Origin: Isoetes taiwanensis
Lineage: Eukaryota > Streptophyta > Lycopodiopsida > Isoetales > Isoetaceae
Reading direction: 5' to 3'
Length of the DNA: 64,000 bases
Assembly: GCA_021234155.1 (NCBI GenBank)
Contig: JAJEKV010000046.1
Span: 9,677,012 to 9,741,011 of the forward strand
The notes under the pieces were generated by a model, which was given only the letters and a program-made list of their open reading frames with translations, was not told the DNA's origin and did no database searches. This document shows positions 1-48,732 of the stretch, piece after piece. The translations under genes and the position numbers were made by a program. The first letter of the stretch is position 1, and every line of letters starts with the position of its first letter.

Positions 1-247
1 ACTTTGGTTAAACCAGCCGCCTTGTATGGCGCACAAGTTTGGGCTCCAAATCTCAGAGACCAATTAAGTTCAAATGACATCCAGCAAACCTTCAGTTCCA
101 CGTGTTATAATGCTGGCAGAATTGCAGCCAAACCTATAAAATTGGAGGCTGATCTCAGCACGTAGTATCTTATTTTCATAGACTAAAATCTTTTGCGGGA
201 CACACCCAAGAAGGCCCGAAGAAGCTCCCCTATTTGGCATTTATATC
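1..247 (+). mobile_element. LINE fragment, C-terminal part of the RT ORF
   Basis: The first reading frame encodes LVKPAALYGAQVW, the segment that follows the reverse-transcriptase core in the LINE at 7130-8570, where the same place reads [10 protein letters not shown]. It is cut at the left window edge. The LTR element at 248-3152 interrupts it. LINE sequence appears to resume after 3157 and to end at the LINE 3' tail near 3391-3437. It is a dead copy and makes no complete product. Confidence 0.65.
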
Positions 248-1260
248 TGTTAGAGTATGATGATGACTGTGCATGCTGAGTCATCACTTGTTGCTGACAT
301 GGCACTCTATATTAGCCATAGTCACGCCTCATTCTGGGGAGTTCACTCTCTAGGAGCTAGTAGGTGCTTACGCTTCTGTCCTTGTCTTTCCTCCATCCTT
401 CTATATTTCCTCATAGGCATATCATGGTTAGAGCCTATCTGAAGGGGAGGTTAGCATGTTCGATCACGGTTGATCTTCAAAATTCTCAGTGAGTTTTTGA
501 TTTGGAAGCTAAGCTCTCAAAGGCTTGGTCAGTTTTGACACAGATTTTATGAGAAATCTTGGTATAGATGTTCTAAGAAATCTGGTGTGGATTGAACCAG
601 TGAATTTTCGAGTCAATTTCTTGGCAAGATTTCTTGCAAGATCAATTGGGCTGCAACTGGAGCAAAGCTCTGAATGAGCGTTGCTGCATTGTGTGGATTT
701 GGTGCGGATCTACACCACAAGGTTGAAGAAGGATCGGTCGGTTTGCTCGGATCTGGAGCTTGCGGGCCGGATCTTGTCGGATTGTGGCATATGGCAAATC
801 GACAGTGTCGGAAAAATATTGCATGCGGAGTTATTTTTGGCTGGATGAATCAAAAAAAAAATTGTTGTTCCGCAGTTATTTTTGGCTGGGTGAATCCTTT
901 GCGGATTTGGTCGGATAAGGGCCACACTTGGAGGAACGGCACCGAATTTAGAACTTGGAGCCAGATTTGGCTCTGGATTTGAAGTTGGATCTGGCTTGCG
1001 GCACACTTCTTGCGGATCTCAAGTTTGCTGTGCCGGATCTCAAGTTTGAGGCTAGGATCTGGGCTTTATGGGCAGTTGGCTCAAGATTTGCATCTTTTGT
1101 TTGGGAGGACTTATAGTTTTTGCTAGCATTTGTGCAATTATTTGCACGGTTATTGATAATCAAAAGCACATAGATCAATAGTAGGACTGTATGCTGGGTG
1201 GATCTATGGACCTCTAACCGGGCAGATGCCATCAGCATATGATTGGGCTTCATTTGAGTT

Positions 1261-1672
1261 CTTAGCGCATGAAAATTATTCTAGCTGGCAAATTTTCATG
1301 CATACAAGCTTCTTTACTCCTATGGACAGGAACATTTGGATATTGTTCTTGGGAAGCATATACGGTTAGATGCAGAAGACAAGCACAAGTTTGATGCAGT
1401 AGATGAAATTGCTTTGAGCACTATTCGCTATGGCAATTGATAAAGAAATACATCCTTGGGTATTAGATGTGTTCTCTAGTTCTAAGGAACTATGGGATTC
1501 CTTGCAGTTTAAATTTGAAATAGATGCAGTTATGGCAACCATGATAGCTGACACAGATGTTCATCAAGAAGATATTCCTGATACATTTCCCCCGATGATT
1601 ATAAAATTGTGGAAAACATTTGGAGGATGCGCCAAGCTGCTTGGATCAAACAGAGCATACTATGTCCAATGA
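1261..1672 (+). pseudogene. Copia-type gag remnant in the LTR element
   Basis: Broken frames read like the N-terminal gag (UBN2-like) of Copia elements: a YSSWQIFMHTSF-like start near 1272, then IDKEIHPWVLDVF and SSKELWDSLQFKFE near 1435-1520. Family gags carry 'YxxW...' followed by 'A...W..L...F'. The frame is interrupted several times, so no capsid protein is expected. Confidence 0.55.
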
Positions 1673-2944
1673 AGATAATGGCAGACGATATTAGTCCATC
1701 TTCTATGATCCAAACTTCATTCGATTATATGTAGATTATGCTGTAACAGAGATGCTCTTGGAGTCTTCATCACTATATATTGCTCCTGTACCTGCTCTGC
1801 AGGGTGCACTGATTCAGGATATTTGCAATGAGATAGAAGACAAGCACATGGTAGTCTCATGTGAATGGAGTGCTGATTTTTCTGAACAAGATATACTTTC
1901 TGATCTTATCATGGACACAGCTCCTGATGTATCCTCTAGGGTATAGGTGAGCTGCATGTTTTGAAAATGACCACAAGCTTACATTGCAAAGTGCTTCAGA
2001 TGCTCTCACTAGTTTATGTCTCCTAGAAGATCATGTACAGCAAGGTCAAAATAATTCATATATGGAAACAGTTGCACCTACAGACTTAGAACAAGACCAA
2101 GATGTTATAGTTGAATCTGAACAAGATGATTTGCATGTGGCTTGTCTGCAAATGAGCATAGGGATGAAATATTTGAGCATCAATGATGGGATACTGCAGA
2201 TTTCAAAGATGAGTTGGTTCTTCAACTTCCTTGGATGGATATATATGAGCAGAATGCTGTTTTTAGTTCCATAATCACCAAGGTTAGTAAACATGAAGTC
2301 GATTTTCCACTTTTATATTCATCTACATATTCCATTTGCTTGCACTTATGATGGGAAGGTGGAGGATCATTCTAACTTGGATGACTGTTTGGGGTATATT
2401 TCTTACCCTGGTATTGGAGGATTCACCAATAGGCTAAAGGTAAATTACAGATGCTTGCATGTGAGAAATCAGGTATTAATTATTCTTGATATATATGACC
2501 ATACAAGTCACTCTACTGATAGTCTACCAGAGCAGTTTGTTTCAGTGGATCAATCTGAATCTTCAAACAATAATTCATTGGATTTGTATGATACTGATAT
2601 GATTGGAAGATTGTCAGATGTGATTTGTGAGTTCTACCATAGCACTGAATCAGATTTTTGAGAAAGGTATATGCACTGCAGAATATATATATTGTTGATA
2701 TGGGTTATCAGTCCCATGCTGGATCTTATATCAGTAGTATGAATGTCTACATCACAAAGACATATAGAATGGTACATTAGGCAGAAAAATAATGGTTTTA
2801 AAACCAAGTTTCAGTGGCATCCATGGTTACTTATGTGGTTGAGCTTGCTTTATATGCTGAATTTTAGGACATGTAACATCTCAGGGGATGTTAGTCCTAG
2901 GATTTATAGTTTTTTTTTTTCAGCCACAGACGTCATCAGGGGGA

Positions 2945-3152
2945 TGTTAGAGCTATGATGATGACTGTGCATGCTGAGTCATCACTTGTTGCTGACATGG
3001 CAGTTTGGGCTCTATATTAGCCATAGTCAAATGACATCCAGCAAACCTTCATTCTGTTATAATGGGAGTTCACCAAACCTCTAGGAGCTAGTAGGTGCTT
3101 ACGCTTCTGTCCTTGTCTTTCCTCCATCCTTCAGGATTTCCTCAGGCTATCA
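2945..3152 (+). repeat. 3' LTR with foreign inserted patches
   Basis: It pairs with the LTR at 248-424 but is 31 bp longer. The extra bases match, in order, sequence at 36-135 outside the element: an 11-base patch at 3002-3012, 25 bases at 3027-3051, 10 bases at 3055-3064 and 8 bases at 3073-3080. Confidence 0.85.
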
Positions 3153-3266
3153 ATATCATCTCCCAAGCATGGCTCCACATGAAATCTTTCCAATAGAAGA
3201 TAAGGCCACTAGGTCCGTACAAGGTATCCCAGCATTTTTTTCAGTCCCTTATCCCAGCATTTTTCC

Positions 3267-3611
3267 AGTCCCTTAAAAAGGACGCTTAGATGAACCAGTC
3301 ATGATGTAGATTTTATCTTTCTAATTACTTGCTAGAACTTAAAATCTAGGGGGATCTTCCAGATGATGAAGTTTATGTATTTATTTGGTCCCTAAGAGTC
3401 TCCTGTAGACGTTAACAAATCTTCCTTCCTTTCCAAGTGGTGTTTGACTATCATTTTCATCTTTTGCAAAATTAACCTACATTTCCAGTCCCTTAAAAAG
3501 GACGTTTAGATGAACCAGTCATGATGTAGATTTTATCTTTCTAATTACTTGCTAGAACTTAAAATCTAGGGGGATCTTCCAGATGATGAAGTTTATGTAT
3601 TTATTTGGTCC
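3267..3611. repeat. 125-bp direct duplication (3267-3391 and 3487-3611)
   Basis: Two near-identical copies, both running from CCAGTCCCTTAAAAAGGACG to TTTATTTGGTCC, are separated by about 95 bp. The spacer begins with a LINE 3' tail (GTAGACGTTAAC followed by TTCC repeats, 3391-3437). This looks like 3'-UTR sequence of a LINE duplicated around its tail. Confidence 0.8.
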
Positions 3612-3984: not shown

Positions 3985-6900
3985 CTGTGGTTTTACATCT
4001 CTCAGTATGAAGGAGTAAGCACAATTCTAATGTCAAGCATTTATCACATACGAAAGTATTATTCTATGTTATGATTTCGAGCAACTTTATGTTTCAAACA
4101 CTTGTCTAAATCCTTCTATAAAGTTATCTTCTAACTGGAAAATCTCCCTTACACCCAACACTCCCCTTAAACCCATGTGGACTAAAAATTTCAGCTTATT
4201 ATGTAGACTAAAAGTTTCAGCTTACTATGACCAGAGATGTGTATCGCTATTTGTTCATGAGCTTGAGCTTGCTCAGAAGTGAATGAGTGACTCAGTGATA
4301 AAAAGCAGCAGCAGCCCAAAAACCAAAGCAAATGGAAATTTCTTTATTCTTCCTTGTTGATATGAGCCACAACAAATGGACAGCTCCCCAAAGAAAAGGA
4401 AACTTCATGATATTAGAAAGGTGACATTGGTGACCTCTAAGAAACTAGAGCTGGCAGCAAACCAGAAACACAAGCCATCCTTACAGAGGAGAAAATATTG
4501 TAGGAATTGAAAAGAGCCAAACCAGAGCAATTGTTGGAGCAGATAAGATGGCAAATGGAACATCTAACTAGGAGCTTTTTTATTTAAGTTTAATTAGATG
4601 TTTTTTAGGAATTGAAATTTAATGCCTTGGAGGCTTTTATCCTCCTTGTCATAATTCTGTATATTTCGGTCTCATAGACCCAACCCTATGGGCCTGCCAT
4701 AGATGCTTAACAAATCTTTCTTTCCCTTGCGCTAAAATTTGACCATTCCCATCTGTTCCCCTTTGGCCAAGGGTTTGGTAAACATATGATTCTGTGTTGA
4801 ACAATAGGTTAAAGCCAGTTGATCGCCAGAAATAGTTCCCTTGCGAAGGAAAGAAGCATGCCAAGGTGTTTGGTTCTAGCATGCAATACTGGAATTTGTA
4901 CTCTGATTCTCAGTGTAAAGTTGTGGCTTCTGTATTGGAACACTGAGATCTTTCAACAACTTCCTGAGCCACATTGCTTCCTGCACCCCTGCTGAAAGAG
5001 CTTTAAAATCAGCCTCAGCAGCGCTGATGAAGACTGTGGATTGCCGTCTAGACATCCAATTGAACACATTGTTAGACCCATGATGATGTCACAGTGCTGA
5101 CCTGTCACTACACGCCTGTTGCTGACGTGACACTCTCATATAAGCCACAGTCAAGCAGTTACGTAGTTAGCATATTTCCTAGTTTCTAAGCATCTATCCT
5201 TGTGTTGCTTTCTTTCACCATGTATACATTCATATGTGTTCATGGTATCAGAGGAGTCGGATTGGTGTTGCCTTTGTAGCAAACCAATTTTCGCCCATTT
5301 TTAGACCAGTCTTGAAGAGCTCTTGCTATTTTTGGCAAAATTCTGTCACAGTGGCTTTTGAAAGGTATCCAAATCTCGGCAAAATTTTGCAGATCTTAGT
5401 GTTTCTCTCAGCAATCTAGCCGTTTCTCATAAGGAAAAGCTTTAGATCCATTCATCTTTAGATTTCTTGACAAAATTGGGCCTGGTTTTGTGTCTTGTTG
5501 GGATTATATCTGGTGATCTCAATCACAGGCTATTTTTGTTTCTAACCAATTCGATTTGGTCATGGCTACCATGCATTCTTGGAAGTTTGTAGCAGCAAGT
5601 TTGCTTGATGGTGAGAATTATTACTCTTGGAGAGACAATTTAAACATCAATTTTCAGTTAAATGATCTAGGAGATGCGCTGCTGCCTACATGGTCTCCTG
5701 CTACTCCAGAAGAGAAAAAGAATGATAATCTTGCACTGTATATGTTGAGGGCTACTGTTTCAGATGCATTTAAGAGAGATCTTAGAGGCATTCTCAGTTT
5801 TAAAGAGGCCCTTCTCTTTCTTAAGCAAACTTGTGTACAAGCAGGAACTGGTCAACATTAGCAATCAAGGGTAAGATGAATAGCCTCAGATTGCAAGATT
5901 GTGGCAATGTGAAGGATTATCTAGAGCAGTTGCAAGGAGAAATTATATGGAGCTGGTGGAACTATTGATGACCGACTTTGATCATGTATGCGTTGCAAGG
6001 ATTATCTAGGGATTACAAGAGTATTTCTGATCATTGTAAGTTGAAGGTCATTACTGGGGACCATTCTCCTCTCCTCTTTTGCCTCAAAACGTGTTTTGAG
6101 TTGGACACAAACTTGCCCCAAGAACCACCTTACTTCCATTTTGAGTTTGACCACTCTCTTGATCTCATCTATAATATTGAGCTTGATATACGATTGAGGG
6201 ACATTGATATGGCACAAGCTCGGGGGAGTGGCTCAGATGACTTTCAGTGATGCAAAGGAATTAATATTAGAGTTAAAGAACATGAATTGAGGGATAATTT
6301 CATAGTCTTTGAAATGCTTGAGTTTAAAACTAAATATAACTTGATAGTCAAGCCTTAGCTAATCAAATCTGCCTTAGACATCTTAATAACTATTTAAAGC
6401 AACGAAATTGTTAAAACGAAATACAAAGCAGAAGTTACAGTAGAAAGAAAGAAAGAAAGAAAGATTTATTAACGTCTACGTAAGACCCGAAGGGTCTATG
6501 AGAAAAGGATGGACGAATCCGGAATTGGCTCCAGTGCAAACGTAACTGGCCGGAAATGCTGGATCATAATAGGAGGGAGCTGGATTTAGTTAAAAGGCAA
6601 AGGTAAACCCAGAATTAGATATGAAAAGACCTTTTAGGATGATAAAAATAACAATCGATCTCCTTAGAGAGGGGACTCCCAGAGCTGTTTGTATGCTGTA
6701 GAAGGCATGATTGCTAACTCTGTAGTAGTTACGATAGCTGAATGTTGTTTCAGTGCCCTTCCTCAGTTTTGGAGTATTCCAGAGAATCCCAGAGAGGCTA
6801 TCCGGTTGGTTAGCAGACTCTCAGAATTGGGAAGAGCCTGAGCCAAGTTTTTGCAGTGTTCGCAAGTCTGAGCCCGGTTGGGTGGTGAATTTGTGCCAGA

Positions 6901-9900
6901 GGACCATTATTCTTCTGATCTAAAGCTGTTTTGCTTAACCCTGTTTGCTAGTTTTGCAGGAGATAAGACCGATTCATATCAAACATCCATATCTTTCAAA
7001 ATGTGGAAGAAAAGGCCACGTTGCTCACATCTGCCGTACACCAAGCCTGCATAAACACTTTCCCACACAAGCTTTGCTCCTTCCGTAAACAGCGTGCACA
7101 TATGCCCCAAAACACTTGATATGACAAGAACGCAAAAATCTTCACAAGCAGCTCAAGGAAGAGTTGGCATCCTGCTCTTCTACAACTATTGCGACTAAGA
7201 AAGCATACAAAAAGCTGATCCGCATGAAAAAAAAAGAATATATAAAGCAGGTGAGGGAAGACATGCTTAACATGCTGTACAGTAATAAATCTGATAAATT
7301 TTGGCAGAAGCTTCATGCTAAGAAATCTGATTTCCCCTTAAAGACCCAAAAGTGTGGACCACTTATGCTCGAGCACTCCTAAATGTGGGAAAAGCAGATT
7401 TGCTTGACATTGGATTGCAGCCCCGGCCCCAATCCTCCTCTCTTTTCTCCACTTCCCTTATCCAAGAAGCTATAAGCAAATTGAACACTGGAAAAGCAAA
7501 AGATTGTGAGGATCTGCAGGCTGAATTTCTCTGATCGATGGAATGGATACCCTTGCGCCTATAGTGGCAGCTTTATTCAATGCGATAATATGCTCAAGCT
7601 TTCCAAAACCATGGACCATTAATATCATCAAGCCAATTATTAAGGCTGGAGACCCAATAAATCCAAACAACTACCGCCTTATAATGATTGGACATGTCAT
7701 GGCAAGATTATATGGATGTGCATTGGACTTGATTATCAGTGAACACGCGGAGATAAATCTCCTTATAGCAAAGGGGCAGGCCGGTTTCAGAAGAAATTTC
7801 TCAACAATAAATCGTATCTTTACCTTGCAGTCTATCATTGAGGAAGCTAACGCAAAGAAAACAAAAGTTTATTGCTGCTTTGTGGATTTCTGCAAAGCCT
7901 TTGATACAGTCCCTTGGAACTGCCTAGTTCATAGACATACTAAACTGGGATTCTCGCATCAAGTCATATGGGTCGTTTTGATGCTCTATGAAAATGTTTT
8001 GAGAAGAATTAAAGTGCCCGGGGGCTACTCGAATGACATAAGCAGCACAATTGGGGTTAAACAGGACTGTCCCTTATCCCCTACACTCTTTGGTTTGTAC
8101 ATTGACGAGTTGGAAAATTCCGTAGCAGTGCTTGGAGGTGATGGGTCTGCTTTAGCTGATGAATGCATATCCATCCTTCTATATGCAGATGATGTGGTAC
8201 TTATATCCTCTTCTCCTGAAGGCCTTCAGCATCATTTATTGGCACTTGAGAAATTTTGCGCTCAAGGAGAGCTTAAAGTGAACTTGGACAAAACAAAAGT
8301 AATGGTTTTCAACACATCACGTACTTTGCATGCATCGTAGTACCTTCTTTTTCATAAATCAACAAGTGGAAGTGGTCTCTTATTATACTTACTTGGGTGT
8401 GCATATGAAAGACTCACAAAGGGATATGCCTCGATTGCAATGCTAGAAAAGAAATGTTTCAAAGCGGATTTTCAGGATGTCCCAGCAAAGCTTCATCTTT
8501 TCAATACCTTAGTTAGACCAGCTGCTCTATACGGAGCTTTGATGTGGGGGATGGACATGACAGTTCTTTTTTTATTTCAGCAGGAGTAAGTGGATTCCAA
8601 GATTTATCCAACACTTCACCCAAATCCTTCAATTAAGGTGAGTTTGAAGAGCATCTCTCCATGTAAAATAATTGTCAGCATCAAGGACTGAATGTTGGAA
8701 ATATTTCCAGGGTTCAGTACTGGCTGCCATTGTGATTGCTCAAAACAAATTCGTGCTGGAAATAACTGTGTGCCTGAATCTGAACAAGTACACCAGGAGG
8801 ACGACTCCAAGCACTCAGATCTGGAAGAAATCTCTTTAGAATATGGAGTTGGGCAATTGTGGAAACTCAGATCTGACAATGCTCTGCCTCAAAGATGGGC
8901 TGCTGTAGCAAGAAATGAAAACACCTGATAATTCCTGCTCAGAGGTTGCAATCCCTGCAAATTCTCATGATTCTTGCAAAACTAGCAAGAATCACCTGTG
9001 AAATCTTCTGATGCAGAAGCCTCAGCAAGGTCCGCTCAAGGTGACGGAATCCTCTCTCCAGTTAATCAATCGGGAAAAAAAAAAATTAGAGAGAGCTCAC
9101 TCCTTCCTCCAAGCCCGCTCTGATACCATGAATAATCTCTATGACTGAAAAGTGAATTGAAGGAATAGAGAAAGACACGGAAGGCGGCGTCTACGCATGC
9201 AAAAGAAGAAGTGAAGAAGACTAAAAACATATATCTGCACTGATAATTCGGGAAGCCAAGCCTTTTGGGAAAGGTCTGAAACAGTACAGGGAAAAGATGA
9301 TTCGTGCATAAAATTGAAAAACTCCTTGATAGCCTTCAGCGCTACTGTAGAAGATAAAGCTTGACTTGTCTACCTGAAATCAATTGTCTGTTTAAATCCA
9401 AACCGTTGCATAAGCCAGAGTTCCATTATCTTGAATAAACCAGAGAAGATGCTCCAGCTGGATTTCTATTGGATTCTCGGGATTGATGGGGCCGAAGAAT
9501 GCCTGTCAAGCCTGAACCCAGTTGTGTGTATCGAATTTGTGCCAATCGAGCCAGTTTAAGTGGTTGTTTAATTGTTTTTACTTCACACAGTTTGTTGACT
9601 TTGCAGAAGCCAGGATAACTCATATCAATCCTGGTCATATTCTATGGCATAAACAAACTAGCAACAATTATCCTAACCTCATATGAAGAAATGAGCACTT
9701 CAAGAAGCCATTCTGGCCATTCTGGCATCTCCACTAATTGCATCCTGTTCTCCAAGCGTGAACAGGCTAGTAGAAAAATGTCCTGAAAGCAAGAATTAAT
9801 TCACATTAAACATAGACTCAATCCAGATTCTTCTTTTTACTTCAATTGCCTTTCTATGGACTAAAAGATATCATGCACTGTGTGGGGAAAAGTACATGCA

Positions 9901-15900: not shown

Positions 15901-18900
15901 AAAAGCTACAGGTAAACTTGGAAAAGAGAGTTTTCAATATTTCCTGCACTCCATTCATCATCTCAAACTTCTTTCCAAGACAGTAGGTGGACATCACTTC
16001 AGGTACACTCGAGTGCTCAGGCACTCTGTTCTGAATGTTAGAATTATTAGATGACGTCACTGCTGCTTCGCCATCTGTTGCCGACCTCGCATTCGTATAA
16101 GAGCCATAGTTAGACACCATTAGAGTAGTTACTTGCTTCCTAGCTAGAGCGTTGCTATTAGGCGTTTCTACCCTGTTGTATTTATCTTTCCTTTCCATGT
16201 ACAGATTGTTAGGATTAAGCACTTCAATCCACAAGCTGTATTGGATTGTGTTGGCTTTTTAACAAGCCTGATCTTATTCAAATTGGAAGAATAATTCGAG
16301 AAATCCTTGCAAGATTATTTGCTGAGATGTTTTTTCTGGTAGAATGTTCAAGAACTTAATGTGAATTATCATATCTTGGTAATTTTTTGAAGTTATCTAG
16401 CTGGCTTTGTTGTGAAAAAAACCTCAGGATCTACTTTTTCATAAACTTTTTCTTAGTTTGGTTGGAGTTTGTTGCCGTGGAAGCTCAAAGTATCAATTGC
16501 TCAAGTTTTTTCAGATCGGGTTGGATCCAGGGAATATTTGGCATCTAAATACTCCCAATTCAGCTCTGCATCACTCAATTCAAGAGGAGATATATGCAAC
16601 TTGAAGATGCCACAATTCTCACAAGTACCATAAAGGCACTCCCTATGGAACTCATCATCAGCTTCTTTTGGACAAACAATGCACCTCCATAACTCATTTG
16701 TTAAGAGATTATTAACGTGCGAGGTTGCTTTCGTGATTTGTTAAATTCGTCGAGATTCCAGCATTGGAGCTCGATTTAACGAATTGGGGTCATAACTCTA
16801 TGTTATATGGTGAAACTGCCTTTTCAGGAATCCAACAACCTTGCAGCACTCCTGGAATATTTTCATGAGCTTGCTCAAAAACGAAGGAGAGTCCTCAACG
16901 ACAGAAACAGCATCAGGCTAAGGAGCCTGAAGCAAGCAGAAATTACTTCATTCTTCCTTGTTGAGGAAGAGTCACAACAGTTTGGAATGACAGCTAGGAT
17001 TGCATCTTCCTAACAGTTTGTCTTTTTGAAATTTCATTAGATGTTTTTTGTGACCCAGTATTTTAATGCCTGCGAGGTAAATCCTCCTTGCAGATCCACA
17101 ATTCTGTATGTTTTTGGTCTCACTGACCCTCTAGGTCTCGTGCAGACATTAACCAACCTACCCTCCCTTCTTCCTTCCTTAATTAGTGTTTCTCAAATAT
17201 TAAGTGAATTTGGGCTTGATAGCCTAAGGAAATCCTAGATATGAAGACAGAAGACTTTTTCCCAACAATAGAATCTATTATTGCACGCATAGTGACCAAA
17301 TGGTCAATAGTAGACCTTCTGGGTCTGAATCCAGCTTGTCCCACTGCTCTAGCATTATTATCCTGAACCCACATACTAATTTTTGAATCCAGAGCGTAAG
17401 CCATCTCCTAGAGTGAACTAAAAAATGTGAGGCTTATATAGTCATGTCATGTCAGCACAAGTGGATCATTCAGCGTATGCTACCATCCCCCTGAAATTGA
17501 ACACGTGAGACAAAGCAAACTTAGTCACACCATAAGCCATGACTGCCAAACCATAGCCTTGAACCGTATCTTTCTGCCTCTCTACCATTCTCATTTCTTG
17601 TCAACGTAAAAATCATTTACAATCAAATTCTGTCTGAAATAGACCTTGTTTTCAACCTACCTGTAAGACTGACATTCTAGATCTTCGTCAAAAGAAAGTT
17701 TCCAATTATTCTTCGAATCATTTCTAAAATTCTGATATTATACGTGTGTAGACGACATTGGAATTCACAAAACTGTCCTGTTAACACTTGTGACCATGTA
17801 CCAGGCTTAACATCATTATTAACCAGGTTTTCCTCTTCAGAGGCATCATTAATCAGTAAGACCTGATTTTCAGAGTGTACCCTTCAAGATCAATGCAAGA
17901 AATATACCCTAAGCACTTAGCAGAAATATGATGATTCTGCATCATGTGAATAAACAACTGGAATATGTAGATTCATGGAGAGTGGAAAATCTAGTTCATG
18001 TTGACTAACCTTGGTGATAAGTGAAGTAAAAACATCGGTCTGCTCATGAATATCCATCCAAGGAAGCCCTAGAACCAACTCGTCTGCAGCAGTCATGCTA
18101 GGTAACTCGAGTTGCTGCTCCATGATTCCAAGTTCTCCAGCACTTGCCAATTCAAGTTTTCTTTCCCTAAGATCTGGAACAAGTTGCAGCTGAACATGTA
18201 TCAAACTGAGCCTGCCACTATTACGTAAGCATGCTACCTCTGTTTTCCCTTCAGATATACAAGGCAAAATTGGCCTCTCTTCATCTCTAGTTTATATAAG
18301 AGCATCCCAGATATGCATGACAAAAGAAGAATAAGCACAATGATCATCGTAAATCTCGGGAATTGGTAATGTTATAATGTCACGTAAAATTCACAATTTG
18401 CTCGTGGCAGTTATTAGCTTCCAAATGAATGTTCTCAAACTTGGACTGTAAACATTCCCATAGTGCCTTGCAACTACAAGAACTACTTAAAACCCATGGT
18501 CATACTTGCTGATCAATGTTAAATTTGAGATCCAAGGCATTGCTGTCTTTCAAATCAAACCTTTTTGGATCTTGTGCCTCTGATCTCGCAAACTGCCCAC
18601 TCACAATTTCCCAGTAACCATGACATGGAAGAGGATTCTTTCTGACGATTTTCCATGGTGAATAATCGTCATGGGGAAAACTCAAATTCTGCCAGGGGTA
18701 TCTAATATCCATAGTCTAGGAGTTGGACTGTATCTCAGAATTTCGTTTGCTTGCAGTACCAATAGTATTGCCAAGAAACCAGAGGAGGATTGACTCTCCC
18801 TTCCAAGAGTATCAATCCAACTCCTGTTCTCAAGAAATAGCTCCCATCCTGACTTGCAGGAACCTACTCCCAGAAAGAGAAGATCGAGAATCACGGTAAA

Positions 18901-21900
18901 TGGTTGCCCCGCTTGTTAACAACAGTAGATCTGACCAATAAAAATTGCCCAAGCCAAAGACCGGTCTAATGTGACCACGTTGCAAGATCTTGCAAAAATA
19001 ACTCAACAGAAATGAAAGAACTCGAACCAGAAATAGCTCCGCCAAAACTCTGACAAGTGGCACTTTTCTTCAGTTAACCACCTGTTTTGGATCAAATACG
19101 ACTCAAAACAAGGTTCTAATTTTGTCCAAATGTCGACAAACACCAGATGTTCAAATCTCGTTACACAGATCCAACCACCACAACCAAGACCTTCGTCCAA
19201 ATTCCAGCAAACATCAGATCCGAGCAAACCAATCCAATTCTTTGTCAATCTTGTAAATTCATATCAGATCCACAAAATGCGAAAACGTTTCATTCAGAAC
19301 TCTGCTCCTTTACAGCCACTTGATCTTACAAGTAATCTTGCCAAGACATCAGCTCGAATTCCTCTCGTCTGGAAGAAACCTGGCTTGTTAAAAAGCCAAT
19401 TCAAGTTTGATCCAGCTGGTGGGAGCTTAGCTTCCAAATTAAGATGCTTGAAGAGATGTTGCAGATCAATCGTGATCGACTTGCACTAACTTCCTCCTTC
19501 AGATAGGCTCTGATACCATGATAGCCTGAGGAAATCCTAGATATAAAGGATGAAAGAAAGACACAGAGGACAGAAGCATAAGCAGACTGGCTCTTAGAGT
19601 CAATTAACAAAAATGTGAGGCATGACTATGGCTTATATACTCATGCCATGTCAGCACAAGTGGATGACTCAACATGCACAGTCATCATAGGTAAGTATGA
19701 TAATACTCTAACAGGACTTTACCATTCAGCTGATTCACAGAATGCGATGCCAAGACTATCCAAGTTAGTGGCAAGATGACAGAATCTAAAATTAATGCTT
19801 TCAAGTTTGCAAATCTGACACCTCAAACAAGGAGTACACAGTTGTTAACAGATAAGGCGAGACCTGTTCAATCCTCTCTTGCTGATCTTTGTACAGTTAA
19901 AAGCTCATTGTTCAGTTTGAAGAATCTATACAGTTATGCTGATCTTCTTGTAAAAGAGGACTAAAGTTGAGTAAAAAAGCCTAAAGGAAAACAAAGGGTG
20001 GCCCAGAAGAAAAAAGGTATGTAAATGTTCAAACAAACCTGATTAGGTTGCGGACAGTCGAGAACAAATTGTATTAAGTGATGTACTTCAGCATCTGCTG
20101 CCAATCCTTGTGCTGAACCTATTAAAAGTTCCACTATCACTAAAAGCTCATCTACAAGTGCATTCAGTTCCCCAACAGGTCTAGGCAGCCTTTCTCCAGC
20201 AAACCCGTGCAACGATCCAGGTTCCGCAACAGTCCAATAGCAATATCTGCAACCATCAAGTAGCATTTGAACGGCATTTGCAGTCCTCATTGTTAATTCT
20301 TCGCTGAAAACCATGTCTGCAAGAGAGGATAAGAGCTTTTTTTGCAGACCATAAGAACATCGACTCCACAACTTCAAATCAAGAAGTAGACAGCTGTAGA
20401 GATGTGTTTTCAGTGTTTGATTCTTACTGGGTGCCTGACACAAGGCCACCACTGCAGCAACCAGTTCTTCATTATGTTCCTCGTCATTTGGTTCAGACAA
20501 GTTATTTTTGATGCAAAATAGATGTCTTAATATGTGTGAAAGCAACTCGGGTCCATGGCTCCTCACCATCTCCTCTGCATTTCCTGGGTGCTGAAGTGCC
20601 ACTGATAATATCCGCAAAATAGAAGGCGAAAGTAATGCAGCCCTTGATGACAAACTTATCTCTCCAATGCAGGGTTGAAATGTCTCTTTGTCAATGCAGC
20701 CAACTGTTAAGGGAAGTAAGGCAAGACAGCCGCCCTCCCCCATGGCCCACATTGCTTCAACTGGCTTGCTTCGAACTGCAACATGAACATGACCAAGAAC
20801 TTCTGCTGGTTTTCTGTGCAGGCCTGCATAATCATGCGAGAACATTAGCTAATTAATTAATTATACATCTCACACAATAGCAAGATCATGCTTACTACAA
20901 ACATTTAAGCATGACTAACTGCAAGAAGAACAAGTATATACCAACATAGATGCATGAAATTGGTCCTAACAACCTGCTGTATACTACTGTGAAGTCTCAA
21001 GTGGAAAATATTTCTACGTGCTCTAGGAAATAAAATAGTAATTTAATTCAATAGCAAATTAGTGTGCCGAATACAACTAGAGATAACTTCACACTACAAG
21101 CCAAGCAAGTTATAAAGGTCCACCTGCTGCTCCTAATGGAGATGCATCCACACATGTCCTCCCTACCAGCAGCTTTGGATGATAAAGCAAATGCAACTTA
21201 GGACCTATATCAGCATCTAAAGCTGCACTGCACTCTGCCAGAATCATTGCCTGATTATTTGTGGCGAGCCACGGCATCCCTGCACCGCTTCCAAACATGG
21301 GCACTGCATCTCCACCCCTTAATGCCATTCGAATCATCTTGTCATGGCCAATAGGCTCTTTGAAAATATACACAGGACCCATCTCTGCAAATAAAGGGCA
21401 TTGTCGACGTCGTCTCTGCAATCCAGCCATTGCAGGCGGTGGGTTGGTGCCAACACAACAAAATGCTAATGGTTTTGAGATCCGTGGGAACTCAAACTGA
21501 CGACTCTCATAAAGCTGTTCATTGATGTACAACTTGAGCTCACTCTCAGACTTCCCAAGGAGGCTTTGCTTGAAGCTATGTTCCAGGCCCACAAAATACC
21601 AGCAATGTGATTCAAAGGCATGAGTAAAATGTAGTGATGCTTTTCTACCTTTGCCGCTTGCTATTTCAACAACTAAAAATTGTCCATGAAAATAAGCTTC
21701 TATTCCTTGGTTGTCTGCAGTCAAGAAGCTAAAAAGTCTAGGCATGTGAGCAGTTCCTTCCCCTGCAAGAGCACTTGCCGCTGCAGCAGCCGACATTGGT
21801 GATGCCTTCCCCACCTTTGCCACTGCAGCTGCTGCAACAGCCGCTGCAGTTGTGGCTGTGTTCAGAGTGTCTGCAAAACTCTCAATATAAAGCCAGGTTG

Positions 21901-23521
21901 CAAATGCATATCCATTTACAAATGGCCAACGTGTTTCTCCTGGACCCAAAAGACCCGAGCTTTCTCCATCAAATTCGAAAGTGTATGAAGGACCTCTTGT
22001 TTCCTCCCCAGACATTGCTTTTTCCAATGTCAATACTAGTTCCCGGGATCTGGCAGTTGACAAAGTTTCAGATACTGTGTGAAGCCATGTTTGCAGGTCA
22101 GGAACTGTCAAGGAATGTGCCCCAAGAATCTCTATTGCATTTAGCAATGGACCTATGCAAGTACTTGTCTCGGCACAATCGGAGGTGAAAACTATTTTAA
22201 CTGCCTGCAGAAGCACTTGCAAAAGCCCTGCTGCAGAACACATTGCTCGGTTCCTTGTGCAAGATTGCAACACCATTAGAAGCCCCTTTATCATCTTGGT
22301 CCTTGGAGATGAAGTCTTCTCATCGTCCTCTTTTGCAGGAAGCCAAGGAATCACCTCTCCTGCCACAACAGCTGCACCTGCACTCAGCATCATTCCCGGG
22401 GCTGAACAACTTTTCTCATCCTTACATTCCACCCCACCCATCTTTGCAACTAGAACATCAACAACCAGAGTCAGTATAGTATCGAGGTCTCTAAACTCTT
22501 GAAGAAGAATATCTTTCCCAGATATGACATTCTTTAGCCTCTCCAGACTATTTTGATCAGACCCCTGGATTGCAGAATCAATCATGCTCATCAATTCTAT
22601 TGATGCATTTGGTCTCACCACCATCTCTTCTTGGAGTATTGGAGAATCAAATAGGGAAGTTAAATTTTCATCATCTACAGATGGAGTTGAAGTTAATTTA
22701 TGGGCAGATAATGAGCTCCTTGAGCTGGTATTAGAAGAACTTGTTGCTGCTAAGCAATCGTTTGGCTCGGTATGTAAACTCCCCGTGAAATCATTAAGAC
22801 TCACATTTACAAAATACCCTTCTCTACTTGGATCTTCTGTTACAAAATACCCTTCTCTACTTGGATCTTCTGTTACAAAATACCCTTCTCTACTTGGATC
22901 TTCTGTTATGAAAGATGGAGTTTGCTGCCCTATATCCACCGAGACTTCCATGATAGAATGTGAGGAGGAAGCAACCCCAACTGCATGACTACTTTCTTCT
23001 GTGGCAATGTCAATATCTTGCTCTGTTATAGATAACGTGTCATCTGCATGAAAGCCATCATCTTCCAGTCTTGGAAATTCAGTTTCAATTAAATCTGCTA
23101 TAAGAAGTCTACCCTCATTCTCAATGCTTGAACCTTGACTAACAACACTAAAGTCTCCACCAGCTAATGCAACTCTATAAGCTTCAGGCAAATTATTCAA
23201 CAAAAAATCTTGTTTAATCTCTTCCTCTAATGCGGGAATATGAGCGTTTGGTAGATCTTCTAATTGTAGCCTGTCGTCTGCACTGGCATTTCTGAAATCT
23301 GATACTTCATTATCCACATTCAGCAGTTGATCTCTTCCACATATAGGATCTGACGATATGTCATACTTTTCCCCGTGAAGATGTTGAGCACCAACCACAT
23401 CCAATTGACAAAATTCCACATGCTGTCCCCCGGTAGTAGGAATCTCATAAGATGCAATTACCTCAACATGCCCACCACTGTTCAGATTGACGTCTTGCAC
23501 TGAGCAGTCTCTCGCGTCCAT
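3868..23521 (-). CDS. BCHC2: BEACH domain-containing protein, plant C1/C2 class (N-terminal part)
   Basis: Large scaffold protein of the BEACH family, which acts in membrane trafficking and vesicle fission or fusion. Exons on the minus strand are 23521-21124, 20823-20039, 14184-13501, 10275-10141, 9782-9678 and 3984-3868. Every junction has GT and AG, and the phases join to 1408 codons without a stop. The order follows plant BEACH C proteins: an acidic N-terminus, a concanavalin A-like domain (about residues 520-790), a conserved armadillo-like stretch with [10 protein letters not shown] and DCPQPNQ, then [52 protein letters not shown] and [12 protein letters not shown]. The first ATG after an in-frame TAA is at 23521. 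The DUF4704, PH, BEACH and WD40 parts are not in the window and should continue left of position 1. C1 and C2 are close paralogues, so the symbol is tentative. Confidence 0.9.
4290..4729 (+). mobile_element. LINE 3' end with hairpin tail
   Basis: It is similar in order to 16807-17195: a CTTTATTCTTCCTTGTTGA segment, TTAGATGTTTTTT, then AATTCTGTAT, GGTCTCATAGACC and the terminal AACAAATCTTTCTTTCC. No intact coding frame remains. Confidence 0.6.
4730..5066 (-). pseudogene. Copia RNase H fragment
   Basis: The minus strand reads [20 protein letters not shown] then [19 protein letters not shown], the RNase H region of Copia pol (family form SRRQSTVALSTAEAEY). Frames after YTENQST are broken. It stops 3 bp before an unrelated LTR on the other strand at 5070. 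Confidence 0.75.
5070..6250 (+). mobile_element. Copia-type LTR plus gag fragment
   Basis: A 173-bp LTR (5070-5242, TGTTAGACC to GTGTTCA) is followed directly by the initiator tRNA-Met primer site TGGTATCAGAG. A gag frame starts at ATG 5562 with [20 protein letters not shown], then [16 protein letters not shown], a Copia UBN2-type gag. A frameshift follows near 5860, and a second open piece at 5978-6250 contains [14 protein letters not shown]. No pol and no second LTR are found, so it is truncated. Confidence 0.75.
6441..6600 (-). mobile_element. SINE/LINE 3' end with (TTTC)n tail, minus strand
   Basis: Read on the minus strand it gives CTCATAGACCC, TTCGGGTCT, ACGTAGACGTTAATAAATC and then a TTTC repeat. 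This is the same double-hairpin tail as at 3391, 4668, 15637 and 17120. The head upstream was not recognised. Confidence 0.6.
7130..8570 (+). mobile_element. LINE (non-LTR retrotransposon) reverse transcriptase, broken
   Basis: The region before the RT (7164-7382, lysine-rich, [15 protein letters not shown]) is followed after frame breaks by RT at 7543-8340: [18 protein letters not shown], then [48 protein letters not shown] and the catalytic YADD at about 8182-8193. Reverse transcriptases of this kind copy their RNA at a nicked target. The frame breaks at 8340, but homology continues to [14 protein letters not shown] near 8505. It lies inside BEACH intron 5. Confidence 0.85.
8600..9129 (-). 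mobile_element. LTR retrotransposon 5' part, minus strand (primer site and gag start)
   Basis: On the minus strand an LTR end (ATTCA, last base 9129) is followed by TGGTATCAGAGC at 9128-9117. Further in, frames read like a Copia gag start (an [11 protein letters not shown]-like stretch spread over two frames near 8640-8690). The LTR extends right of 9129, but its outer edge could not be placed. Confidence 0.55.
9678..10275 (-). CDS. BCHC2: BEACH protein exons 4 (10275-10141) and 5 (9782-9678)
   Basis: Exon 4 (45 codons) begins [26 protein letters not shown] and ends LQHRALQ/gtgcag. Exon 5 (35 codons) begins [13 protein letters not shown] and ends [10 protein letters not shown]/gttagg. Both are phase 0 and fully open, and neither is long enough to show in simple ORF scans. 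They match consecutive blocks of plant BEACH C proteins, which fixes the order and strand. Confidence 0.85.
11760..12690 (-). mobile_element. LINE RT fragment, minus strand
   Basis: The minus strand encodes TIGVKQ and [11 protein letters not shown] near 12680-12610, YADDI near 12535, then [17 protein letters not shown] and, after breaks, the [14 protein letters not shown]-like piece near 12215-12170. These match the + strand LINE at 7130-8570 block by block. Several frameshifts show that it is dead. Confidence 0.75.
12723..13050 (+). mobile_element. LINE endonuclease-domain fragment
   Basis: The frame reads [15 protein letters not shown], then [13 protein letters not shown] and, after a one-base shift, [13 protein letters not shown]. 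This is the apurinic-endonuclease-like domain of LINEs, where LLLGDFNAR is usual. It lies head-to-head with the minus-strand RT fragment to its left. Confidence 0.65.
13501..14184 (-). CDS. BCHC2: BEACH protein exon 3
   Basis: 228 codons in phase 0, from GTGCAG/GTTACAAG to GGATTTCAA/gtgact. It starts [25 protein letters not shown] and ends with the conserved [22 protein letters not shown] block. The middle is a variable linker with a 30-bp tandem duplication ([10 protein letters not shown] twice, 13924-13983). Intron 2, on its 5' side, is 5.85 kb long and hosts an LTR element and LINE fragments. Confidence 0.88.
14950..15703 (+). mobile_element. LINE C-terminal zinc-binding region and 3' tail
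   Basis: The frame 14971-15435 has [14 protein letters not shown], then a zinc-knuckle-like CRLCQLN and [20 protein letters not shown]. This is the C-terminal region that follows the RT in plant and animal LINEs. It ends with the family's tail GTCTCTTGTAGACG and TTTCTTCCTTTC (about 15650-15700). It lies in BEACH intron 2. Confidence 0.7.
16036..16260. repeat. Possible solo LTR of the TGTTAG family
   Basis: It starts TGTTAGAATTATTAGATGAC and shares the layout of the LTRs at 248, 5070 and 19713: a GACGTCACTGCTG block, then a TATAAGAGCCATAGTTAGAC block, then CTTTCCTTTCC. The right boundary and a target duplication could not be fixed. Confidence 0.35.
16807..17195 (+). mobile_element. LINE 3' end
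   Basis: Short coding remnant ([18 protein letters not shown]), then the same 3' block as at 4290-4729, ending GGTCTCACTGACC, GGTCTCGTGCAGAC and a CCTTCCTT tail. Confidence 0.55.
17217..19713 (-). mobile_element. Non-autonomous LTR element, minus strand, same family as 248-3152
   Basis: The 5' LTR is 19713-19519 (TGTTAGAG to GGCTATCA) and is followed by TGGTATCAGAG and CCTATCTGAAGG. The 3' LTR is 17485-17217, preceded by an AGGGGGA-type purine tract and split by a LINE RT piece (about 17404-17245, [15 protein letters not shown]). Flanks GGACT (19714-19718) and GGGCT (17212-17216) look like a diverged target duplication. The interior has a gag remnant (18712-18500, [12 protein letters not shown]) and a retropepsin-like [15 protein letters not shown] (about 18085-18040). 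It is shared in order with 248-3152. Confidence 0.75.
20039..20823 (-). CDS. BCHC2: BEACH protein exon 2: armadillo-like region
   Basis: The exon opens after ATGCAG with [15 protein letters not shown] and runs through [45 protein letters not shown] and [16 protein letters not shown] to DCPQPNQ/gtttgt. These blocks are diagnostic of plant BEACH C proteins. The open frame continues a little into the intron on the 3' side, but conservation stops exactly at the donor. Confidence 0.9.
21124..23521 (-). CDS. BCHC2: BEACH protein exon 1: acidic N-terminus and ConA-like domain
   Basis: About 799 codons. The first 400 residues are acidic and poorly conserved, and include a perfect three-fold 11-residue repeat ([11 protein letters not shown], 22808-22906). 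A poly-alanine-rich stretch near 21780-21860 precedes [20 protein letters not shown], the start of the concanavalin A-like lectin fold found in BEACH proteins. [17 protein letters not shown] and the [18 protein letters not shown] region follow. The exon ends in phase 1 at GCAGCAG/gtggac, a donor of moderate strength. Confidence 0.9.
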
Positions 23522-46252: not shown

Positions 46253-46318
46253 TGTGTGGGGGATTCGAACCCCGGCCATTGACTCCCCAACCCCCCATTC
46301 TAACCACTAGACCAAGCA
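46253..46318 (-). repeat. tRNA-derived head (SINE relic), minus strand
   Basis: Minus strand has a perfect A box TGGTCTAGTGG (46314-46304) and B box GGTTCGAATCC (46271-46261) with a paired TpsiC-type arm GGGG/CCCC. The acceptor strands (TAATGCT against CACACAA) do not pair and no proper anticodon arm is seen, so it is not a working tRNA gene. Confidence 0.6.
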
Positions 46319-48732
46319 TTAATTTCATGAATAATTTATGTTTCAAATATACTTAAGGGTAATATTCGCATTAAGATAAAATAGACTATAACATTCTAGC
46401 TAGTTCAAGAAAGTTCTAGAATGTTTTGGAAGGCTCTAGAAAGTTCTAGAATCTTCTAGAAAGTTCTAGAACATAAGAGAATCTAGGGGGGATCTAAGAA
46501 AATTCTTCCAGAAAATTCCAAATTGTTCTAATAAGTTTTAGAATGTTCTAGAATGTAGGGGAATCTACGGGAATGTAAGGAAATCTAGGGAAATACTTCC
46601 AGAAAGTTCTAGAATATATATTGAAAGTCTTAGAATGTTCCAGAAAGTCTTAGAATGTTCTAAAAAGTTATAGAATGTAAAGGAATCCAGAAGAATCTAA
46701 TAGAATCTAAGAAAATCTTATAAAATGTAGGAGAATCTAGGAAAATATTTACAAGCCTAAGGGAATCTCTTAAAATCTAGGGGATCTAAGGGAATCTTCA
46801 TAAAATCTAAGGGAATCTAAAAAATGTTGATGAAATCTTAGAGTATCTAGGGGAATCTTTATAGAATCTCTTTGAATCTCATATAATGTAAGGGAACCTA
46901 GGGCAATCTCATAAAGTCTAAAGGGATCTAAGGGAATCTAGGGGGGTCTTCATAGAATCTTGGAGAATCTACAGAAGGAATCTAGAGGGAATCTTATAAA
47001 ATTTAGAGGAATCTCTACGAAACCTCCAAGAGAACCTTGGTAGAATCTTAGAGAATCTATGAATTTAGAGTATTCTCAAAAGATTCTTTTTAGACCAAGC
47101 ATTGAATTTCATGAATAAATGTTTCAAATATATAGGAACATGCTAAAACTCATTAAGATAAAATAGGACTATTAAATTTCTAGTTCAAGAAAGTTCTAGA
47201 ATGTTCTGGAAGGCTCTAGAAAGTTCTAGAATCTTCTAGAAAGTTCTAGAACATAAGAGAATCTAAGGGGGATCTAAGAAAATTCTTCCAAAAAGTTCCA
47301 AATTGTTCTAATAAGTTTTAGAATATTCTAGAATGTAGGGGAATCTACGGGAATGTAAGGAAATCTAGGGAAATAGGCGAGGAAAGTTCTAGAATATATT
47401 GAAAGTCTTAGAATGTTCCAGAAAGCCTTAGAATGTCCTAAAAAGTTCTAGAATGTAAAGGAATCCAGAAGAATCTAATAGAATCTAAGAAAATCTTATA
47501 AAATGTAGGAGAATCTAGGAAAATATTTACAAGCCTAAGGGAATCTCTTAAAATCTAGGGGATCTAAGGGAATCTTCATAAAATCTAAGGGAATCTAAAA
47601 AATGTTGATGAAATCTTAGAGTATCTAGGGGAATCTTTATAGAATCTCTTTGAATCTCATATAATGTAAGGGAACCTAGGGCAATCTCATAAAGTCTAAA
47701 GGGATCTAAAGGAATCTAAGGGGGTCTAGGGGGATTTTCATAGAATCTTGGAGAATCTACAGAAGGAATCTAGAGGGAATCTTATAAAATTTAGAGGAAT
47801 CTCTACGAAACCTCCAAGAGAACCTTGGTAGAATCTTAGAGAATCTATGAATTTAGAGTATTCTCAAAAGATTCTTTTAGAATGTAGCGCACGACAAGAA
47901 CTTGCAGCATAGGAACATGCTAAAACTCGGACATGCACCGTAGGACGCATTAAATTTCCTAGTTCAAGAAAGTTCTAGAATGTTCTGGAAGGCTCTAGAA
48001 AGTTCTAGAATCTTCTAGAAAGTTCTAGAACATAAGAGAATCTAAGGGGGATCTAAGAAAATTCTTCCAAAAAGTTCCAAATTGTTCTAATAAGTTTTAG
48101 AATATTCTAGAATGTAGGGGAATCTACGGGAATGTAAGGAAATCTAAGGCAGAAAGTTCTAGAATATATTGAAAGTCTTAGAATGTTCCAGAAAGCCTTA
48201 GAATGTCCTAAAAAGTTCTAGAATGTAAAGGAATCCAGAAGAATCTAATAAAATCTAAGAAAATCTTATAAAATGTAGAAGAATCTAGGAAAATATTTAC
48301 AAGCCTAAGGGAATCTCTTAAAATCTAGGGGATCTAAGGGAATCTTCATAAAATCTAAGGTAAAAAAATGTTGATGAAATCTTAGAGTATCTAGGGAAAT
48401 CTTTATAGAATCTCTTTGAATCTCATATAATGTAAGGGAACCTAGGGCAATCTCATAAAGTCTAAAGGGATCTAAAGGAATCTAAGGGGATCTAGGGGGA
48501 TTTTCATAGAATCTTGGAGAATCTACAGAAATCTAATGGAATCTAGAGGGAATCTTATAAAATTTAGAGGAATCTCTACGAAACCTCCAAGAGAACCTTG
48601 GTAGAATCTTAGAGAATCTATAAATTTAGAGTATTCTCAAAAGATTCTTTTAGAATGTAGGGCACGACAAGAACTTGCAGCATAGGAACATGTTAAAACT
48701 CGGACATGCACCGTAGGACGCACTAAATTTCT
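46309..48732. repeat. Three tandem units of about 780 bp, rich in TTCTAGAA and GAATCTA words
   Basis: Homologous points AGTTCAAGAAAGTTCTAGAA lie at 46402, 47182 and 47961, giving a period of 779-780 bp. Units 2 and 3 are more alike than either is to unit 1 over the 5' part. Inside each unit, hundreds of bases consist of degenerate GGAATCTA and TTCTAGAA words, so the unit itself grew from a short motif. The array ends about 345 bp before the SKA1 start codon. Confidence 0.9.
46404..48030. promoter_or_regulatory. Heat-shock-element-like arrays (46404-46471, 47184-47251, 47963-48030)
   Basis: Each 68-bp stretch is a run of 14 alternating TTC and GAA triplets with 2-base spacers, the nTTCnnGAAn arrangement bound by HSF trimers. 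In units 2 and 3 only one triplet deviates (CTC), and in unit 1 one more (TTT). Real heat-shock promoters usually have three to six such modules. The match is exact, but a function is only inferred, since repeat growth alone could produce it. Confidence 0.35.

What the first reader, a model, noticed from the sequence alone, without database searches (positions are those of the whole stretch)
2945..3152. 3' LTR interleaved, in order, with sequence from outside the element
Compared with its partner LTR (248-424), this LTR has extra patches at 3002-3012, 3027-3051, 3055-3064 and 3073-3080. They match 36-46, 70-94, 103-112 and 128-135, in the same order and orientation; one match is 25 bases long. 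The donor region is LINE sequence upstream of the 5' LTR. Chance is excluded by the 25-base match and the collinearity. Either two templates were merged during consensus building, or repeated microhomology-driven template switching occurred between the LTR and its flank.
Basis: seen in the sequence. Interest (0 to 1): 0.7.

Follow-up and report, generated by a model that had tools for sequence, protein, structure and literature searches.

The report
LTR blended with flanking LINE sequence
One end repeat of a jumping gene reads as a stitched blend of itself and the old LINE sequence next door, most likely because assembly software merged two versions of the same spot rather than because the DNA is really like that.

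Summary
LTR3 (2945-3152) holds four patches, 3002-3012, 3027-3051, 3055-3064 and 3073-3080, that match 36-46, 70-94, 103-112 and 128-135 exactly and in order. Across the mosaic the LTR's own sequence loses only five bases. Four of four other LTRs compared lack the patches, so they are additions. Chance is excluded. The flank is decayed LINE.

All eight switches fall on 1-3 bases shared by both sequences. These lie on the optimal LTR-LINE alignment more often than random collinear switches do (2 of 2000 reach the observed value), provided the alignment starts at the first switch. A path through an alignment graph behaves this way. Simulated partial-order consensus gave at least as many switches in 317 of 2400 runs, never this exact sequence. 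The partner is the pre-insertion flank, and the element has a 5-bp target duplication. Best explanation: reads from an empty allele, or a LINE copy without the element, were merged with LTR3 during read correction or polishing. A real patchwork cannot be excluded without reads. Interest is low.

The parts
1..247 (+). decayed LINE sequence (3' part of the RT-encoding ORF), the partner of the mosaic and the left flank of the insertion
   Evidence: tblastn to window LINE 8506-8559, 61% over 18 aa, E 1.8e-4; frames broken by stops
243..247 (+). left target-site duplication ATATC
248..424 (+). 5' LTR without patches
425..2944 (+). internal region; the one ORF scanned (2275-2658) had no Pfam hit; related to the copy at 17217-19713 (-)
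2945..3152 (+). 3' LTR, mosaic
3002..3012 (+). patch 1, equals 36-46
3027..3051 (+). patch 2, equals 70-94
3055..3064 (+). patch 3, equals 103-112
3073..3080 (+). patch 4, equals 128-135
3153..3157 (+). right target-site duplication ATATC
17217..19713 (-). diverged relative of the same element; its 5' LTR (19713-19519) lacks the patches, its 3' LTR (17488-17217) lacks them too and holds a different LINE piece
5070..5246 (+). LTR of a more distant related element, lacks the patches (3' end approximate)

Best explanation
The mosaic is a consensus artefact. A fairly young LTR element sits in old LINE sequence. Reads that carry the unfilled site (the other haplotype, or a LINE copy without the element) were piled onto reads carrying the 3' LTR. 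Because they share the right flank, LINE bases were aligned with unrelated LTR bases. A path-following consensus (partial-order or DAG type) then hopped between the two wherever a few bases coincided. Shown: exact collinear patches, shared bases at every switch, fit to the optimal alignment once it starts at the first switch, absence from four other LTRs, a 5-bp target duplication, and that such a consensus can make similar mosaics. Inferred: that an empty allele or copy exists and that this software step happened.
For: Each of eight switches has 1-3 shared bases, sum 16; of 20000 random sets, all eight >=1 in 0.00105 and sum >=16 in 0.0014. The shared pairs lie on the optimal LTR-LINE alignment more than random collinear chains with the same run lengths (2 of 2000 under each of four scorings). 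Offsets fall 2966, 2957, 2952, 2945 towards 2910, the offset of the target duplication, as expected if the partner is the unfilled site anchored at the right flank. LTR5 256-401 has no substitution against LTR3, only the five missing bases, so the insertion looks young and could be heterozygous. In simulated partial-order consensus 317 of 2400 runs had at least as many switches as the observed (4 by that block-counting measure); the closest was 10 edits from the observed 79 nt, against 34 and 23 for the parents. The six internal junction words all turned up in further simulations, on average 2.4 times as often as for random chains; 27 and 28 of 1000 random chains did as well. PMC10997618 (passages): correction on POA graphs can mix alleles of different haplotypes. 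PMC5411767 (passages): Canu follows the highest-weight path of an alignment DAG and collapses less diverged haplotypes.
Against: No reads, no own genome and no knowledge of the assembly method. LINE 1-35 and 136-247 left no patch in the LTR, although the model would align the latter too. The mosaic has no stray error, unlike the simulated ones printed. No simulation gave the exact sequence, and the slices were cut at the observed first switch; when the whole LTR and the whole flank were aligned end to end, the sampled optimal alignments held only 0-3 of the 16 pairs. An earlier small partial-order trial came no nearer than 31 edits to the 151-nt target, parents 40 and 82. A FALCON-like simulation made few switches (mean 0-1.8, maximum 4, observed 5 by that measure).
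Confidence: 0.74

Rival explanations
1. The patchwork is real: a polymerase (plus-strand completion by the element's reverse transcriptase, or replication/repair by microhomology-driven template switching) hopped eight times between LTR3 and the neighbouring LINE.
For: Donor is 2.9 kb away on the same strand; eight of eight switches have microhomology. Template switching during plant LTR-element reverse transcription is published (PMC1950507, abstract seen).
Against: Each return to the LTR resumes where it left off, with five LTR bases lost in all, so both templates would have to advance in step without homology. Overlaps are 1-3 nt. The switches track the optimal alignment. The published cases, by the abstract, are fusions of two parent elements, not alternation every 5-25 nt.
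Confidence: 0.15
2. Several independent small templated insertions, or a filler event during break repair within LTR3, later fixed.
For: The relative copy also carries foreign LINE sequence in its 3' LTR, so LINE pieces do enter these LTRs.
Against: Four insertions in donor order with the LTR kept between them are not what one filler event gives (inference); independent events would not keep the order.
Confidence: 0.07
3. The patches are ancestral LTR sequence lost from the other LTRs, and the flank copied them.
For: None found.
Against: Four of four other LTRs lack them, and patch 2 lies within an open frame of the LINE flank.
Confidence: 0.02

Closest known systems
Mixed-haplotype consensus from POA/DAG read correction (PMC10997618 and, for the graph method, PMC5411767; passages seen)
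   Same: A path through an alignment graph that can combine two alleles
   Different: Those passages speak of heterozygous alleles in general; a filled versus empty transposon site merged inside an LTR is my extension
Template-switched complex LTR retrotransposons of Triticeae (PMC1950507, abstract seen)
   Same: LTR element joined with other sequence
   Different: There two parent elements are fused; here four patches of 8-25 nt alternate with LTR sequence in one LTR only

Membership tests
LTR retrotransposon, Copia-like non-autonomous | paired LTRs in direct orientation with TG...CA ends | tested here: met
   LTR5 and LTR3 begin TGTTAG and end ATCA
LTR retrotransposon, Copia-like non-autonomous | 5-bp target-site duplication | tested here: met
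   ATATC on both sides
LTR retrotransposon, Copia-like non-autonomous | primer-binding site and polypurine tract | tested here: inconclusive
   PBS-like TGGTTAGAGCC after LTR5, TGGTATCAGAGCC in the relative; purine run CAGGGGGATG before LTR3. That the latter PBS motif pairs with initiator Met tRNA is recalled
LTR retrotransposon, Copia-like non-autonomous | gag-pol genes (absent if non-autonomous) | tested here: inconclusive
   only one internal ORF (2275-2658) was scanned, no Pfam hit; frames broken by stops
Mixed-allele consensus artefact | switches only at bases shared by both sources | tested here: met
   eight of eight
Mixed-allele consensus artefact | switches lie on the alignment of the two sources | tested here: inconclusive
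   met when the alignment starts at the first switch; 0-3 of 16 pairs when whole LTR and whole flank are aligned end to end
Mixed-allele consensus artefact | no single read carries the mosaic | not testable with these tools
   no reads; no own genome
Mixed-allele consensus artefact | an unfilled allele or copy exists | not testable with these tools
   no own genome
Template switching | junctions with microhomology to a nearby or co-packaged template | tested here: met
   1-3 nt at eight of eight
Template switching | change present in a physical molecule | not testable with these tools
   no reads

The most novel reading that the evidence does not exclude
The mosaic is real: an LTR was rebuilt by rapid back-and-forth copying between itself and the pre-insertion flank, two non-homologous templates advancing in step, perhaps in a heteroduplex between a filled and an empty allele whose short paired stretches were kept and whose loops were repaired piecemeal. 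The foreign LINE piece in the relative's 3' LTR would then be a second product of LINE uptake by 3' LTRs of this family.
Probability: 0.08. Interest if true: 0.75.

Novelty: not a real feature. Interest (0 to 1): 0.17.

Why it matters
If an artefact, it is a readable example of how consensus software can write plausible but non-existent DNA at a possibly heterozygous transposon site, and it would distort LTR dating and family models built from this copy. If real, it would show a collinear two-template patchwork for which I know no mechanism (from recall).

Tried and rejected
Other LTRs as carriers of the patches: four of four negative. Other interleaved sites in the window: 58 same-strand chains and 21 opposite-strand rows were judged by eye. 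One patchy chain, 9065-9178/19465-19564, was examined and reads as another LTR end with primer site; one weak opposite-strand pair, 16251-16317/19399-19333, was not examined. Two further presumed LTR pairs, 50725-50985/55660-55925 and 26930-27090/30610-30780, showed no such interleaving by eye; some of their indels look like tandem duplications. Exact 24-mers of the LTR and of patch 2 in viral contigs: none. Six paper searches showed, among the titles and abstract starts listed, no report of a filled/empty transposon merge inside an LTR; only PMC5411767 and PMC10997618 (passages) and PMC1950507 (abstract) were opened. The first POA trial and the FALCON-like simulation did not reproduce the sequence. 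The species was not identified; 'plant' rests on general features and recall. Checkpoint notes are.

Full report
What is there. An LTR element occupies 248-3152, with LTR5 at 248-424, LTR3 at 2945-3152 and a 5-bp target duplication ATATC at 243-247 and 3153-3157. Its left flank is decayed LINE sequence: the flank's frame matches another LINE in the window. A diverged relative lies on the minus strand at 19713-17217, and a more distant LTR at 5070. No genome is held for the window, so copies elsewhere and reads could not be looked at.

The observation. The four patches are exact and in order, occur in none of the four other LTRs compared, and are not chance. The LTR's own blocks run on through the mosaic, 256-304, 305-324, 329-336, 337-346 and 348-401, with five bases missing; the flank's blocks skip 23, 8 and 15 bases. 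The stretch 3002-3080 is fully tiled by the two sources. In scans of both strands I found by eye no second mosaic of this kind, though one weak pair was left unexamined.

The switches. The overlaps at the eight switches are 1, 3, 3, 3, 2, 1, 1 and 2 bases. For random jumps between LTR5 and the flank, all eight having at least one shared base has P 0.00105, and a sum of 16 or more P 0.0014 (20000 draws). I then asked whether the 16 shared pairs lie on the optimal alignment of LTR 304-349 with LINE 36-135. Their mean marginal over all co-optimal alignments was 0.66-0.67, against 0.29-0.30 for random collinear chains with the same run lengths; 2 of 2000 reached it under each of four scorings, and likewise when the alignment ran on to the target duplication. 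When the whole LTR was aligned to the whole 247-nt flank, the alignment took another course and the sampled co-optimal alignments held only 0-3 of 16 pairs. So the fit depends on starting at the first switch.

Simulation. Noisy reads of the LTR5 slice and of the LINE slice, mixed near parity and put through a partial-order consensus, gave at least four switches (the observed value by that block-counting measure, which misses the shortest blocks) in 317 of 2400 runs; the nearest was 10 edits from the observed 79 nt, where the parents are 34 and 23 away. All six internal junction words of the observed mosaic appeared in further simulations (0.4-7% of 2000 runs each), on average 2.4 times as often as for random chains; 27 and 28 of 1000 random chains did as well. 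An earlier small POA trial and a FALCON-like consensus were less like the observed. The simulations therefore show that the artefact is possible and resembles the find, not that it happened.

Why this partner. The mosaic's partner is the sequence that stood beside the site before the insertion. If the element is heterozygous, reads of the empty allele share the right flank with reads of LTR3, and their LINE bases fall on LTR3. The falling offsets 2966, 2957, 2952, 2945 and finally 2910 at the target duplication agree with that. LTR5 256-401 has no substitution against LTR3, which fits a young insertion; the last 23 bases of LTR5 differ, and there LTR3 is closer to the relative's LTR than LTR5 is. 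Against the model, LINE 136-247 left no patch. The passages seen support the general mechanism: POA-based correction can mix alleles of different haplotypes (PMC10997618), and Canu follows the highest-weight path of an alignment graph (PMC5411767).

Verdict. Consensus merge, about 0.74; a real patchwork of some kind, about 0.22 in all. Reads decide it.

Noticed in passing
17243-17392 (-): The 3' LTR of the relative copy contains a 150-nt open LINE reverse-transcriptase piece (42% identical over 50 aa to the window LINE at 7723-7872) that its 5' LTR lacks. Two of two 3' LTRs of this family seen in the window thus hold LINE sequence, in different ways.
   Followed up: partly
400-435: The 3' end of LTR5 and the primer-binding site are irregular (ATAGGCATATCATGGTTAGAGCC) compared with the relative (CAGGCTATCATGGTATCAGAGCC); small indels that may be decay or the same kind of consensus trouble.
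   Followed up: partly
3262-3391 and 3482-3611: A 130-nt stretch is repeated 220 nt on at 99% identity just right of the element, with a further short repeat (3450-3485/3627-3662, 94%). Could be a tandem duplication or a false duplication of two haplotypes.
   Followed up: no
2207-2426 and 18085-17875 (-): The best conserved internal stretch of the two element copies (73%) reads DELVLQLPWMDIYEQNAVFSSIITKVSKHEVDFPL / [35 protein letters not shown] in one frame, with somewhat more differences at third positions (14, 12, 20). A possible protein of this family; Pfam gave nothing for the ORF 2275-2658, which overlaps it in a different frame.
   Followed up: partly
9065-9200 (-): What looks like the end of another LTR with a primer-binding site (TCATGGTATCAGAGC shared with the relative copy).
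   Followed up: partly
22807-22908: A 33-nt unit repeated three times without a mismatch, in frame within a long ORF weakly like Neurobeachin (below Pfam's cut-off).
   Followed up: no
46308-48731: A tandem array of about 780-nt units, each made of degenerate short repeats, about 93% alike.
   Followed up: no
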